The translations under genes and the position numbers were made by a program. This document shows, one piece after another, positions 9,945 through 19,823 of a stretch of 45,256 bases of DNA. The stretch is taken from contig JAGWPE010000100.1 of NCBI GenBank assembly GCA_028870635.1, forward strand, positions 1 through 45,256. The letters are read 5' to 3'. This DNA is from Gammaproteobacteria bacterium. Lineage in GTDB: Bacteria > Pseudomonadota > Gammaproteobacteria > Steroidobacterales > Steroidobacteraceae. The notes beneath the pieces were generated by a model. The model was not told where the DNA came from. It did no database searches and was given only the letters and a program-made list of their open reading frames with translations. Every line of letters starts with the position of its first letter. Position 1 is the stretch's first letter.

Positions 9945-12266
9945 TCATGTCGGTGATGCCTTGGACTGCCGGTTCGACAGGGGATTGCCGATCGGCAGCC
10001 GGCGCAGGCGGCGGCCGGTGGCGGCGAAGATGGCGTTACAGAGCGCCGGCGCGATCGGCGGCAGGCCGGGCTCGCCGACGCCGCCGGGCGGCACCTCGAA
10101 GCTCGCCGGCTGCAGATGCAGGCGGATCTCCCGCGGCGCCTCGGGCATGCGCAAAACGGGAAAGTCGTTGAAATTCGACTGCTGCACGCGGCCGTCCTTG
10201 AAGGTGATCTCTCCGTGCATCGCCACTGTGAGGCCCATGATGCAAGCACCCTCCAGCTGCGCGCGTATGCGATCGGGATTGACCTGCGCACCGCAATCGA
10301 ACGCAAGGTCCACCCGCGGAATGACGATCTCGCCCCCCGAGCCAACCCGCACCTCGATCACCGCGGCGGCGTAGCTCATGAAGCTGTAGGTAGCTGCGAG
10401 CCCCAGGCCCTGCCCCTTCGGCATCGAGCGGCCCCATCCCGCCTCGCTCGTGGCGCGCTCGATGACCGCGCGCAGCCGTCCCGTATCGAGCGGATACAGC
10501 ACAGGCGACTCGCCGTAGTTCCACTCATCCGACAGGGAGCGAGGATCGAGGCGGCGCGGCGGACCGATGAGCTCCAGCTGATAGTCCCGCGGATCGCGCC
10601 CGGCGGCATGCGCCAGCTCGTCGAGGAAGCTCTGGATCGCGAAACCGTGCGCGATGTTGTAAACGGAGCGGAACCAGCCGATGCGGGTGTAGGCCGGAAC
10701 CGGCGGGATCTCCAGCCGGACATTGGGAATGCGCAACGGAATGTTGATCATTCCCATGCCGTACTCGGTCTGATCCTCGCCTTCGGCCCCGGCCTCGAAG
10801 GTGGCATTCTCGGTAGGGGCCGCAGAACGGTGCAGCCATGCGAGCGGCATGCCGTCGGGCCCGAGCACCGCCTCCAGACGTTGGAGCGAAACGGCCTGGT
10901 AATAGTCGTGGCGGATGTCGTCCTCGCGGGTCCACATCACTTTGACCGGCCTTCCCTGCATGGCCTTGCTCAGCAACGCCGCCTCGCCAGCGAAATCCGG
11001 CAGCGATTTGCGCCCGAATGCGCCGCCGAGCAGCGTGACATTCACCGTGACATCCGATTCCTTCATACCGAGGAGGCTCGTCACCAGATCGCGCGTGGCC
11101 TGCGGCGCCTGCACCGGCGCCCACACCTCGCAGCGTCCATCGAGGATGCGCGCGGTCGCCGCCGGCGGCTCCATCGAGGCGTGGGCGAGGAACGGCAGGT
11201 AGTATTCGGCTTCGAGCCGCTTGCCGCCCTTCTGCAGCGCCGCCACCGCATCGCCCTGATTGCGAACCACCTTGGCCGGTTGGCGCACCGCGTTTTGCAG
11301 CACGGTCTCGAACTGCCGCGAGTCGTAGCTCCGGTTCGGGCCCTCATCCCATTGCACCTTCAGCGCCTCCCGGCCCTTGATCGCGGCCCAGGTGTTGCCG
11401 GCCAGGACGGCCACGCCTCCCAGGGGGAAGTACTGCGCAGGCAGCGGATGCGAGGGGATTTCCACGACCCGTACGACGCCGGGAACGGCGAGCGCCGCCT
11501 GTGCATCGTAGTGCACCAGCTTTCCCCCCAACACCGCGGGCCGCGCCACGACGGCGTACAACATCCCGTCCAGCCTCGTATCGATGCCATAGGCAGCACG
11601 ACCCGCAACGATGTCCCCGCCGTCGACCGATCGGGTACTCGATTTTCCGATGTAGCGGAATTGCGCCGGATCCTTCAGCCGCAGCTGACGCGGCTCGGGG
11701 ATGGGCTGATGCATCGCCTCCCCCGCGAGCTCGCCGTAGGAAAGCCGTCTGTCAGTGCCGCGATGCAGCACCCGCTGACGCTCGGCGACGACCTCGCTCG
11801 CAGGCACGCCCCAGCGGGCCGCGGCTGCGGCCTCGAGCATCATGCGCGCCGCGGCGCCCACGCGCCGCATCGGCTGAAAGAAATGGCGCATGCTGCGCGA
11901 TCCGTCCGTGTCCTGGCTGCCGTATCGCGCCTCATCCGCCGGCGCCTGCGTGACCCGGACCCGAGGCCAGTCTGCCTCGAGCTCATCGGCCACGACGAGC
12001 GCCAGGCTGGTCCGGATGCCCTGGCCCATTTCCGGCCGGTGCACCGTGACGAGCACCGTATCGTCCGGATGGATCGACACGAACACCAACGGGTTGTCGA
12101 CCACCCCGCCGGGGTCGGCGGCCGCTCCGTAAAGCTGGGTCTGACTCGCCAACACGACGCCGCCGGACTCCCGTACGCACAGCGCCAGTCCGCCGAGCGC
12201 CGCGGCGCTCTTCAGTATCGCGCGACGCGTGAGCCCGCCCGCTCCGCTGGGATCGTGAGTGCTCAT
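9945..12266 (-). CDS. Molybdopterin-binding large subunit, xanthine dehydrogenase family (IorB-like)
   Basis: A 773-residue molybdenum-hydroxylase subunit. It starts with a Tat signal ([14 protein letters not shown], twin Arg at 14-15), so the holoenzyme acts in the periplasm. The family blocks [29 protein letters not shown] and [20 protein letters not shown] are present. The catalytic Glu of the family is at about 732 in GEPGLPP. Relatives oxidise aldehydes or hydroxylate N-heterocycles such as isoquinoline, passing electrons through the [2Fe-2S] subunit to a cytochrome c. The ATG at 12266 overlaps the small-subunit stop (ATGA); the frame continues upstream but only as an overlap. It is the last gene of a minus-strand operon that also encodes the TTQ amine dehydrogenase, which suggests oxidation of the aldehyde made from the amine (inference). 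Confidence 0.9.
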
Positions 12267-12733
12267 GGCGCGCTCCGCAGCTGCTCGGCCGCTCGATGGA
12301 TCGCCGCGCGGATGCGTGGGTACGTGCCGCACCGGCAGATGTTGCCTGCCATCGCGGAATCGACGTCCTGGTCCGTAGGATGCGGTGACGCCCGCAGCAA
12401 CGCGACGGCGCTCATGATCTGTCCGGCCTGGCAGTAGCCGCACTGCGCCACGCCCAGCGCCAGCCAGGCTTCCTGCACGGCACGACCCACGCGGTCGCGC
12501 CCCACGCCTTCGACCGTGGTGATCGGCTTGCCGATGGCTGCGCTCAAGGGAGTTACGCAAGTGCGCACCGGCTGGCCCGCCACGTGAACGTTGCAGGCGC
12601 CGCAAAGGCCCATGCCGCAGCCGAACTTGGTTCCGGTCAGACCCAGGTGATCGCGCAGCACCCACAGCAGTGGAGTATCCGGTGTCGCCTCCACCTTGAC
12701 GGGCACGCCGTTGACGCTCAGCTCAGATTGCAT
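12263..12733 (-). CDS. [2Fe-2S] small subunit, xanthine dehydrogenase family (IorA-like)
   Basis: A 156-residue iron-sulfur subunit. The plant-ferredoxin-like cluster is bound by Cys 39, 44, 47 and 59 ([10 protein letters not shown] and TCV). The second, all-helical cluster domain has Cys 98 and 101 (CGYC) and Cys 133 and 135 (NICRCGTYP). Size and motifs match the small subunits of two-subunit molybdenum hydroxylases such as IorA. No FAD subunit is present, as expected for the cytochrome-linked branch. It probably rides to the periplasm with the Tat-tagged large subunit. Its stop overlaps the large-subunit start, and a cytochrome c gene lies 19 bases upstream in the same operon. Confidence 0.92.
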
Positions 12734-12752
12734 GACAGCCCTCCGGCAAGGA

Positions 12753-18496: not shown

Positions 18497-18506
18497 GGCG
18501 GGATCA

Positions 18507-19823
18507 TCAGGCGATGCGGCGCAGCACGCCGCGCAGCAACTCGACCATGTTGGCAATCTCCTCCTCGGTGGAGATGAAGGGGGGCGCCATGGCAATCGTA
18601 TCGGCAGTGAAGCGCAGCAGCAATCCCGACTGGACTCCGCGCTCGAATGCTTCGCGCCCCCTCGCCCCGGGCTGTCCTTCGCGCGTGCGCAGCTCCACGG
18701 CCGCCGCGAGGCCGAAGTTGCGAATGTCGATGACGTGAGGCTCGCCCTGCAGTGAGTGCACGGCGTCCTCGAGCACGCGCTCGAGTCGCGCCGCGCGAGC
18801 GACCATCCCCTCGTTTGCGAACACGTCCAGGGTCGCGAGCCCCGCGGCGCATGCGATCGGGTGTCCGGAGTAAGTGTAGCCGTGCAGGAACTCTATCGCC
18901 TGCTCGGGGCCGCGCATCATCGTGTCATGGATGCTCTGTTGGACGATCGCGCCGCCGAGCGGTATCACGCCGTTGGTAGCGGCTTTGGCGAATACGATGA
19001 TGTCGGGAGTGACGCCGAGCCGCTGCGCCGCGAAGTTGGCGCCGAGCCGGCCGAAGCCGGTGATGACTTCGTCGAAGATCAAAAGGATCCCGTGGCGCGT
19101 GCAGATTTCGCGCAGGCGTTCGAGGTAGCCGAGCGGCGGGACGATCACCCCTGTCGATCCCTGCATCGGCTCGACGATGACCGCGGCGATGGTCGAGGCG
19201 TCGTGCAGTGCGACCAGACGCTCCAGCGCATCGGCGAGGTGCGCGCCCCACGCCGGCTGCCCTCGGCTGAAGCCCATCTGGGCCGGATCATGCGTATGCG
19301 GCAGATGATCCACGAAAGGGGCGCTGAGCGCGCCGAACAGGCGGCGATTGGCCGCGATCCCTCCGGCGGAGATTCCCCCGATGCCCACGCCGTGATAGGC
19401 GCGCTCACGCCCGATGACGCGCACCCTGCTCGCCTCTCCACGTGCGTGGTGATAGGCCAAGGCGATCTTCAGGCCGCTGTCCACGGCCTCGGACCCTGAA
19501 TTGGTGAAGAATACCCGGTTCAGTCCCTCCGGTGCCCACTGGGCGATGCGCGCCGCCAGCTCGAACGCCTTGGGATGCCCCACCTGGAAAGTAGGCGCGA
19601 AATCCAGCTCACCGGCCTGCGCCCGCACGGCGGCGAGGATCTCGGGCCGGCCATGCCCGAGCGGCGTGCACCATAGGCCCGAGAGGCAGTCGAAGAGACG
19701 CCGGCCGTCGGCCAGGCTGAAATAGGCGCCGTCCGCTCCCGTGACGAGCGTGGGGTGTCGTTTGAAGTGTCGGTTGGCCGTGAACGGCATCCAGAAAGCC
19801 GAGAGGTCGGTTTGCGTGCTCAT
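18507..19823 (-). CDS. Class III aminotransferase (omega-amino acid:pyruvate type)
   Basis: A 438-residue PLP enzyme of the class III (omega) aminotransferases. Visible residues are the cofactor-binding TNSGSEAVDSGLKIA, AYHGVGIGG, Asp 251 in LLIFDEVITGFGRLG, which pairs with the PLP ring nitrogen, and Lys 280 in IVFAKAATNGVIPLGG, which forms the Schiff base. The N terminus FWMPFTANRHFKRHP is typical of beta-alanine:pyruvate and similar omega-amino acid aminotransferases. It would transaminate an amine or omega-amino acid in the cytoplasm. Start 19823 matches the family N terminus, although the ribosome site is weak. It is divergent from the MocR regulator and is the first gene before mauE-mauD. 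Confidence 0.93.
   Translation of the reverse strand: MSTQTDLSAFWMPFTANRHFKRHPTLVTGADGAYFSLADGRRLFDCLSGLWCTPLGHGRPEILAAVRAQAGELDFAPTFQVGHPKAFELAARIAQWAPEGLNRVFFTNSGSEAVDSGLKIALAYHHARGEASRVRVIGRERAYHGVGIGGISAGGIAANRRLFGALSAPFVDHLPHTHDPAQMGFSRGQPAWGAHLADALERLVALHDASTIAAVIVEPMQGSTGVIVPPLGYLERLREICTRHGILLIFDEVITGFGRLGANFAAQRLGVTPDIIVFAKAATNGVIPLGGAIVQQSIHDTMMRGPEQAIEFLHGYTYSGHPIACAAGLATLDVFANEGMVARAARLERVLEDAVHSLQGEPHVIDIRNFGLAAAVELRTREGQPGARGREAFERGVQSGLLLRFTADTIAMAPPFISTEEEIANMVELLRGVLRRIA

What the first reader, a model, noticed from the sequence alone, without database searches (positions are those of the whole stretch)
9945..19823. Composite operon joining a TTQ amine dehydrogenase to an IorAB-type molybdenum hydroxylase, a FAD amine oxidase and a class III aminotransferase
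Seen: aminotransferase-mauE-mauD, then FAD oxidase-TauE-mauB-mauA-cytochrome c-IorA-IorB, all on the minus strand with ATGA or few-base junctions. Known: MauBA makes aldehyde and ammonia from primary amines in the periplasm; Tat-exported IorAB-type enzymes oxidise aldehydes or N-heterocycles and reduce cytochrome c. Inference: a periplasmic amine-to-carboxylate pathway with two quinone/molybdenum enzymes feeding shared cytochromes, backed by cytoplasmic transamination and flavin oxidation. I do not recall this set described as one system.
Basis: partly seen in the sequence, partly recalled or inferred. Interest (0 to 1): 0.75.

Follow-up and report, generated by a model that had tools for sequence, protein, structure and literature searches.

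The report
Likely polyamine-oxidising gene cluster
A bacterial gene set that probably burns polyamine-type amines outside the inner membrane, using two unusual cofactor enzymes in a row and one shared genetic switch; the parts are known, but the substrate is inferred and the combination was not found in the papers searched.

Summary
In detail: ten minus-strand genes at 9945-19823, all but the small cytochrome c identified by family profiles. One correction: mauD and the FAD oxidase are 101 bp apart, with a conserved promoter and 15-bp dyad (TATCGATAATCAATA), so there are probably two transcripts; mauBA, cytochrome and iorAB share the second.

The set is not unique: closely related iorB (>=77%) was found in 11 of 217 genomes of the family, each with the same mauA type. 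In this assembly the dyad (up to 1 mismatch) occurs twice: before the FAD-oxidase operon, and between a TonB receptor and an IclR regulator. In related genomes it stands at the same promoters, before IclR-permease-IorB operons and, twice, before an aminobutyraldehyde dehydrogenase.

Sister clusters carry spermidine dehydrogenase (intact in 4 of 11 loci, remnants in 2), and the aminotransferase is of beta-alanine:pyruvate type. Best reading: an IclR-controlled polyamine/diamine oxidation regulon, diamine -> aminoaldehyde (TTQ enzyme) -> omega-amino acid (Mo enzyme) -> transamination. No substrate was tested; no spermidine dehydrogenase was found in this 83%-complete assembly; aromatic or short amines remain possible.

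The parts
18507..19823 (-). class III omega-aminotransferase (AptA / beta-alanine:pyruvate type)
   Evidence: NF052567 667.7 > 500; best PDB 4B98, 466 bits
17954..18496 (-). mauE
   Evidence: PF07291 84 bits
17361..17954 (-). mauD, thioredoxin-like
   Evidence: TIGR02661 183.4, just under 188.6
17278..17344 (-). promoter TTGACG-N17-TATGCT and dyad TATCGATAATCAATA (17278-17292)
   Evidence: whole string in 6 sister loci; exact dyad before the FAD oxidase in 8 of 11 sister loci
15943..17259 (-). FAD-dependent oxidoreductase (DAO family), role unknown
   Evidence: PF01266 227 bits; AmaA 342.5, under 600
15023..15946 (-). TauE/SafE-like membrane protein, role unknown
   Evidence: PF01925 63 bits
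13845..15026 (-). mauB, TTQ amine dehydrogenase large subunit
   Evidence: PF06433 122 bits; TIGR02658 124, under 454
13309..13842 (-). mauA, TTQ small subunit
   Evidence: PF02975 169 bits; TIGR02659 202.9 > 196.85; TTQ tryptophans kept
12753..13289 (-). cytochrome c with one CxxCH (CytC1)
   Evidence: motif read in the sequence; CGGCH in 11 of 11 sister proteins
12263..12733 (-). iorA-like [2Fe-2S] subunit
   Evidence: Fer2, Fer2_2
9945..12266 (-). iorB-like molybdenum subunit with twin-arginine leader
   Evidence: MoCoBD_1/_2; PDB 8GY3 275 bits; leader by eye
9379..9897 (+). second cytochrome c (CytC2)
   Evidence: PF00034; conserved beside IclR
8486..9352 (+). IclR-family regulator (ORF opens at 8303; start at 8486 likely)
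   Evidence: PF01614, PF09339; start candidates
8386..8400 (+). second dyad copy, TATCGATAAACAATA, between the TonB and IclR starts
5755..8304 (-). TonB-dependent receptor (ORF opens at 8409)
   Evidence: PF00593, PF07715
19869..21305 (+). MocR-type (GntR plus aminotransferase domain) regulator
   Evidence: PF00392, PF00155; next to the aminotransferase in 5 of 11 sister loci

Best explanation
An IclR-controlled polyamine/diamine catabolic regulon working mainly in the periplasm. A TonB receptor brings in the substrate (inferred). MauBA, matured by MauE/MauD and possibly by a MauG-family protein encoded elsewhere, oxidises a primary amine end to an aminoaldehyde plus ammonia and passes electrons to small cytochromes c (cofactor residues shown; substrate and acceptor inferred). 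IorAB, exported by the Tat path, oxidises the aminoaldehyde (3-aminopropanal, 4-aminobutanal or its ring form 1-pyrroline) to beta-alanine or GABA (inferred; nearest solved relative is an aldehyde dehydrogenase). A GABA-permease-like carrier imports the omega-amino acid and the AptA-type aminotransferase moves its amino group to pyruvate (families shown; reactions inferred). Sister species have, or had, spermidine dehydrogenase in the same operon, which would yield 1,3-diaminopropane and 1-pyrroline upstream. The dyad before the FAD-oxidase/mauBA/iorAB operon and between TonB and IclR is most likely the operator of the IclR protein (position shown; binding inferred).
For: Spermidine dehydrogenase (434 bits to PDB 7D9I, both heme His ligands kept) intact in 4 of 11 sister loci at two positions, remnants at the TauE-mauB junction in 2 more. 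The sister of the type-A mauB clade (L070) is spermidine dehydrogenase-mauB-mauA-cytC. In 60 genomes with both, 17 of 124 spermidine dehydrogenase genes lie within 15 kb of a mauA, 1.7 expected. An aminobutyraldehyde dehydrogenase (NF010000 777 > 615) sits behind an exact dyad in G016, its homologue (978 bits) behind one in G046, and another (773.5 > 615) directly follows iorB in G041. IclR, a GABA-permease-like carrier and IorB form dyad-headed operons in G004, G005, G056; this genome has an 81% ortholog of such a carrier. Aminotransferase of beta-alanine:pyruvate type. The window's TonB subfamily faces a spermidine dehydrogenase-aminotransferase-FAD oxidase-glutamine synthetase-like operon in L122, L125, L126, L128; in L125 the aminotransferase is near putrescine and polyamine:pyruvate enzymes. 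TTQ residues intact. Dyad: 22 of 22 sites in the fetched loci lie at FAD-oxidase, IclR or TonB promoters; 64 sites against 4 for the reversed pattern in 58 genomes of the genus.
Against: No spermidine dehydrogenase found in this genome (83% complete; an empty answer without a positive control), and its aminobutyraldehyde dehydrogenase ortholog (72%, contig C18) has no dyad. The aminobutyraldehyde dehydrogenases miss the stricter equivalog cut-off (TIGR03374 730 and 723 vs 909), and the permeases miss the GABA-permease cut-off (454-461 vs 678). Dyad operons occur in G001, G005 and G056, where no mauA was found. 23 of 64 TonB-subfamily genes are near neither mauA nor spermidine dehydrogenase; in three g2 loci scanned the neighbour is an ABC transporter. 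The IclR protein is closest to the PcaR/PcaU/PobR group (228.5, below 284.75). Aromatic O-demethylation genes lie 11-21 kb away in the window. Enrichments are not corrected for shared descent. No substrate was tested.
Confidence: 0.57

Rival explanations
1. Aromatic amine pathway: the TTQ enzyme oxidises an aromatic or lignin-type amine (phenethylamine, tyramine, vanillylamine) to its aldehyde and IorAB makes the aromatic acid, which the IclR protein senses.
For: IclR protein nearest PcaR/PcaU/PobR (228.5, below cut-off). Two vanillate/3-O-methylgallate O-demethylases (759 and 734 > 580) and a phenylacetaldehyde-dehydrogenase-like gene (709 < 850) in the window. Aromatic amine dehydrogenase is a TTQ enzyme of the same fold.
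Against: The aromatic genes were not seen in the fetched sister flanks (by eye, partial coverage); spermidine dehydrogenase, aminobutyraldehyde dehydrogenase and GABA-type permease are the recurrent partners. MauA scores 190 bits to methylamine and 129 to aromatic amine dehydrogenase.
Confidence: 0.18
2. Methylamine or other short primary amines: an unusual methylamine dehydrogenase cluster in which IorAB oxidises formaldehyde or a short aldehyde.
For: Small subunit passes the methylamine dehydrogenase equivalog (202.9 > 196.85) and its best solved match is methylamine dehydrogenase.
Against: Large subunit far below the equivalog (124 vs 454); no amicyanin among the proteins scanned; omega-aminotransferase, spermidine and aminobutyraldehyde dehydrogenases have no role in it.
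Confidence: 0.14
3. Broad amine scavenging: the regulon serves several amines released from amides, and the linked dehydrogenases differ by species with no single substrate.
For: Partners vary: Amidohydro_3 protein in L071-L074, gamma-glutamyltranspeptidase in L065, PQQ dehydrogenase in L036 and L038.
Against: The recurring specific partners point at polyamines.
Confidence: 0.08
4. Chance neighbours: iorAB and mauBA are side by side without working together.
For: IorB relatives of 56-65% mostly sit among unrelated genes.
Against: Tight junctions, conservation in 10 other genomes and IorB behind the same dyad in genomes where it is not beside mauBA.
Confidence: 0.03

Closest known systems
Methylamine dehydrogenase (mau) cluster
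   Same: mauB, mauA, mauE, mauD; TTQ residues
   Different: no amicyanin or MauG gene among the proteins scanned in the window; MauB 124 bits vs cut-off 454; joined to iorAB, aminotransferase, FAD oxidase, TauE, TonB and IclR
Aromatic amine dehydrogenase (aau) cluster (gene order recalled)
   Same: TTQ enzyme; the B-E-D-A order is seen in other loci here
   Different: in type A the genes are split as E-D and B-A, followed by iorAB; MauA 129 bits to it, 190 to methylamine dehydrogenase
Molybdenum aldehyde dehydrogenase, PDB 8GY3 (acetic acid bacteria; source recalled)
   Same: large subunit aligned over residues 7-760 of 773, 275 bits; [2Fe-2S] partner; a cytochrome c gene next to it
   Different: cytochrome here is a small one-heme protein, not a multi-heme subunit (recalled for 8GY3)
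Isoquinoline 1-oxidoreductase IorAB (recalled)
   Same: subunit make-up
   Different: no specific profile or solved structure came up; best match is an aldehyde dehydrogenase
Spermidine dehydrogenase SpdH of Pseudomonas aeruginosa (7D9F-J; PMC12564564)
   Same: found in sister clusters, 434 bits, His54 and His562 equivalents kept
   Different: not in the window and not found in this assembly

Membership tests
TTQ amine dehydrogenase (fold family) | both TTQ tryptophans and the catalytic Asp in the small subunit | tested here: met
   W57, W108, D76 equivalents invariant in 64 of 64 aligned MauA, window included (numbering recalled)
TTQ amine dehydrogenase (fold family) | profile matches of both subunits | tested here: met
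   PF02975 169 bits, PF06433 122 bits, both over cut-off
Methylamine dehydrogenase proper | both NCBIfam equivalog cut-offs | tested here: not met
   small subunit 202.9 > 196.85, large subunit 124.3 < 454.45
Methylamine dehydrogenase proper | amicyanin as electron acceptor | tested here: inconclusive
   none among the window proteins scanned; genome not searched for it
TTQ biogenesis | a MauG-family diheme protein in the genome | tested here: inconclusive
   two PF03150 matches on contigs C134 and C391; the family also rings in E. coli, so true MauG is not shown
Xanthine oxidase-family Mo hydroxylase | [2Fe-2S] motifs and catalytic Glu of the Mo subunit | tested here: met
   window: Fer2, Fer2_2, MoCoBD and GVGEPG in the 8GY3 alignment; sisters: GVGEP in 9 of 10 IorB (tenth cut by its contig), CGYCQ and CRCG in 10 of 10 IorA, GCGxGLCGAC in 9 of 10
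Isoquinoline 1-oxidoreductase | hydroxylation of N-heterocycles | not testable with these tools
   sequence only; best solved match is an aldehyde dehydrogenase
Omega-aminotransferase AptA | NF052567 cut-off | tested here: met
   667.7 > 500
L-pipecolate oxidase AmaA (FAD oxidase) | NF050086 cut-off | tested here: not met
   342.5 < 600
Spermidine dehydrogenase (sister loci) | twin-arginine leader and both heme His ligands | tested here: met
   4 of 4 intact copies; ligands from PMC12564564 passages, aligned
Aminobutyraldehyde dehydrogenase (sister loci) | NF010000 subfamily and TIGR03374 equivalog cut-offs | tested here: inconclusive
   NF010000 met (777, 773.5 > 615); TIGR03374 not met (730, 723 < 909)
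PcaR/PcaU/PobR regulators | TIGR02431 cut-off | tested here: not met
   228.5 < 284.75
Polyamine catabolic pathway | activity or growth on a polyamine | not testable with these tools
   gene-neighbour and operator evidence only

The most novel reading that the evidence does not exclude
A dedicated polyamine respiration outside the cytoplasm: three cytochrome-c-linked dehydrogenases of different cofactor type (FAD/heme b spermidine dehydrogenase in sister species, TTQ diamine dehydrogenase, molybdenum aldehyde dehydrogenase) strip electrons from spermidine down to beta-alanine and GABA before uptake, under one IclR operator. It would give TTQ enzymes a physiological substrate class besides methylamine and aromatic amines, and a complete amine-to-carboxylate path in the periplasm.
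Probability: 0.4. Interest if true: 0.75.

Novelty: new variant of a known kind. Interest (0 to 1): 0.62.

Why it matters
TTQ amine dehydrogenases are well-studied enzymes with few known jobs, yet 86 of 217 genomes of this family carry a mauA, one of them six copies (that genome is listed with 6% contamination). A substrate proposal, an exact operator sequence and a named regulator make their role directly testable. If right, polyamines can serve as electron donors in the periplasm by a route without hydrogen peroxide that keeps reactive aminoaldehydes out of the cytoplasm.

Tried and rejected
One ten-gene transcript: weakened by the conserved promoter in the 101-bp gap and by a 3-kb insertion with a transposase-like ORF (by eye) at that junction in L039. 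N-heterocycle hydroxylation as the main IorAB job: no specific support. Taurine pathway (aminotransferase, MocR and TauE together suggested it): the aminotransferase scores 466 bits to beta-alanine:pyruvate and 188 to taurine transaminase. TonB receptor as proof of polyamine uptake: 41 of 64 subfamily genes are near mauA or spermidine dehydrogenase, 23 are not. A theme around the 56-65% IorB relatives: mostly unrelated neighbours. Structure prediction and fold searches were not used.

Selection: the 11 sister loci are those with mauA >=85% identical (8 loci) plus G017, G043 and G046 taken. Of 27 'type B' loci, 7 (L065, L069-L074) were fetched because IorB or spermidine dehydrogenase was known to be near. 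The 20 loci of other families were chosen by contig. One search scored at most 4 candidates per genome and cut their match lists.
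Full report
1. What is there. The window is the whole contig C389 of a draft genome of 3.55 Mb in 420 contigs, 83% complete. Ten minus-strand genes match the finding; junctions are 10, -1, 101, -4, -4, 2, 19, 19 and -4 bp. Families are over curated Pfam cut-offs except MauD and the small cytochrome; at equivalog level MauD (183.4 vs 188.6), the FAD oxidase (342.5 vs 600) and MauB (124 vs 454) fall short, while MauA (202.9 vs 196.85) and the aminotransferase (667.7 vs 500) pass. 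The TTQ tryptophans and the catalytic Asp are invariant in 64 of 64 aligned MauA; 53 of 64, the window included, have Ser where methylamine dehydrogenase has Thr122; the mature window protein has 14 cysteines against the 12 I count in the methylamine dehydrogenase row (residue numbers recalled). IorB and MauA have twin-arginine leaders by eye; a twin-arginine motif is present in 10 of 10 sister IorB.

2. A conserved set. The window's IorB against 217 genomes of the family found 11 with >=77% identity, this one and ten others, all of the same genus (at most 4 candidates scored per genome). All 11 have mauA of the window's type. A twelfth, G027, has close FAD oxidase, TauE, MauD and MauE on a contig that ends there, and no mauA was found. 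In 11 fetched sister loci (10 genomes; G041 has two) the following lie within 10 kb of mauA: FAD oxidase 10, TauE 10, iorA 10, iorB 9 (in L035 and L037 the contig ends before or within it), mauE 8, mauD 8, aminotransferase 6, IclR 6, MocR 5, TonB 5, spermidine dehydrogenase 4, PQQ dehydrogenase 2 (several contigs are short; in L036 the aminotransferase is truly absent upstream). In 9 loci with mauA 57-62% identical none of the non-mau partners reaches its threshold and the order is B-E-D-A. On a MauB tree (64 rows, quick method) type A is one clade (support 100) with L070 as sister (96); IorB presence needs at least 7 changes (60 rows) and spermidine dehydrogenase 10 (59 rows), loci with cut contigs left out. 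The row choice is partly biased (see Tried and rejected).

3. One switch. The 101-bp gap holds TTGACG-N17-TATGCT and then TATCGATAATCAATA, a near-palindrome. The whole string recurs in 6 sister loci and the exact 15-mer stands before the FAD oxidase in 8 of 11; L041 and L042 do not cover the place and L034 has none within 1 mismatch there. In this assembly the degenerate form with up to 1 mismatch occurs at two places: here and at 8386-8400 between the TonB and IclR starts; the reversed control pattern hit once. In 107 other fetched loci there are 22 sites, 13 in type A and 9 in the 27 type B loci, none in the other 69; local shuffles gave a mean of 0.15. All 22 lie at a FAD-oxidase (13) or an IclR/TonB (9) promoter; L088 is the loosest, 312 bp before TonB. 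In 58 genomes of the genus there are 64 sites against 4 for the reversed pattern; 39 of the 64 are within 7 kb of mauA or of the TonB subfamily. I fetched 12 of the 25 others: 6 precede IclR (in 3 of them a GABA-permease-like gene and IorB follow), 2 the FAD oxidase, 4 a TonB-like receptor of another subfamily (76-85 bits). Sites and mauA coincide by genome (27 both, 7 mauA only, 6 site only, 18 neither; Fisher 5e-5, descent not corrected). That IclR binds the dyad is inference.

4. The substrate. Sister clusters carry spermidine dehydrogenase, intact in 4 of 11 loci (three between TauE and mauB, one after iorB), with remnants between TauE and mauB in two more (L036, L040). It scores 434 bits to the solved P. 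aeruginosa enzyme and keeps both heme ligands. [quoted passage not shown] L070, sister of type A, is spermidine dehydrogenase-mauB-mauA-cytochrome. In the 60 genomes with both genes, 17 of 124 spermidine dehydrogenase genes lie within 15 kb of a mauA, 1.7 expected under random placement (numbers typed; descent not corrected). An exact dyad stands about 25 bp before an aminobutyraldehyde dehydrogenase gene in G016 (NF010000 777 > 615; TIGR03374 730 < 909) and before its homologue in G046 (978 bits to the G016 protein); another (773.5 > 615; TIGR03374 723 < 909) follows iorB in G041. 4-Aminobutanal is the aldehyde of putrescine and the open form of 1-pyrroline (recalled chemistry). The permeases of the regulon are nearest GABA permease (454-461, below 678) and this genome has an 81% ortholog on C110. 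The aminotransferase is nearest beta-alanine:pyruvate transaminase (466 bits). The window's TonB subfamily faces a spermidine dehydrogenase-aminotransferase-FAD oxidase-glutamine synthetase-like operon in L122, L125, L126 and L128; only L125 was profiled: its aminotransferase passes NF005682 (691 > 510) and is near putrescine and polyamine:pyruvate enzymes (577, 529 bits), while its FAD oxidase and glutamine synthetase-like protein pass no cut-off.

5. Against. No spermidine dehydrogenase was found in this assembly and its aminobutyraldehyde dehydrogenase ortholog has no dyad. Dyad-headed operons exist in G001, G005 and G056, where no mauA was found (63-82% complete). Aromatic-acid genes lie in the window and the IclR protein is nearest the PcaR/PcaU/PobR group, below cut-off. 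23 of 64 TonB-subfamily genes are near neither marker gene. No job could be given to the FAD oxidase and TauE-like protein, although they are the most constant partners.

6. Literature. The open-licence library held no paper with 'amine dehydrogenase' and 'isoquinoline 1-oxidoreductase', 'spermidine dehydrogenase' and 'methylamine dehydrogenase', mauA, mauB and polyamine, the terms, or the five terms. Eleven held 'methylamine dehydrogenase' with 'putrescine': I saw passages of one (PMC9547800, which lists methylamine and aralkylamine dehydrogenases as acting on histamine) and only the listing of the rest. Four held 'polyamine' with 'tryptophylquinone': I saw passages of one (PMC2147049, a quinohemoprotein amine dehydrogenase of Arcobacter) and only the listing of the rest. 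Searches were seen as listings, apart from PMC12564564. Most subscription papers are not in this library, so absence in print is not shown.

7. Verdict.

Noticed in passing
window 31173-40512: Aromatic O-demethylation block: two vanillate/3-O-methylgallate O-demethylases (32853-35144 minus, 38971-40512 plus), FAD monooxygenase, phenylacetaldehyde-dehydrogenase-like gene, zinc alcohol dehydrogenase, LysR and AraC regulators.
   Followed up: partly
window 24272-28745: A second molybdenum enzyme, DMSO-reductase type, with a DmsC-like anchor.
   Followed up: no
L166 10600-13700 and L038 134-1809 (both G034:C38): A second IorAB pair near the type-A cluster, and two genes that look by eye like XdhC and a MobA/MocA-type nucleotidyltransferase (no profile run).
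   Followed up: no
L036 14735-16780 and L038 13519-15678: A PQQ alcohol-dehydrogenase-like gene before cytC2 in two type-A loci; the L036 copy scores TIGR03075 367, below 480.
   Followed up: partly
L071, L072, L073, L074: A homologue of an Amidohydro_3 protein about 1 kb from mauA in four type-B loci, perhaps releasing amide-bound amines (only the L071 copy was profiled).
   Followed up: no
G011:C7, about 167000-199200 (L069, L070): Three mauA and three spermidine dehydrogenase genes within about 33 kb; the genome is listed with six and five in all, at 6% contamination.
   Followed up: partly
window 13309-13842 (MauA): Two extra cysteines, each kept in 63 of 64 aligned relatives, possibly a seventh disulfide.
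   Followed up: no
L059: An IorAB relative (61%) near an amidase and a glutamine-synthetase-like gene in another genus.
   Followed up: no
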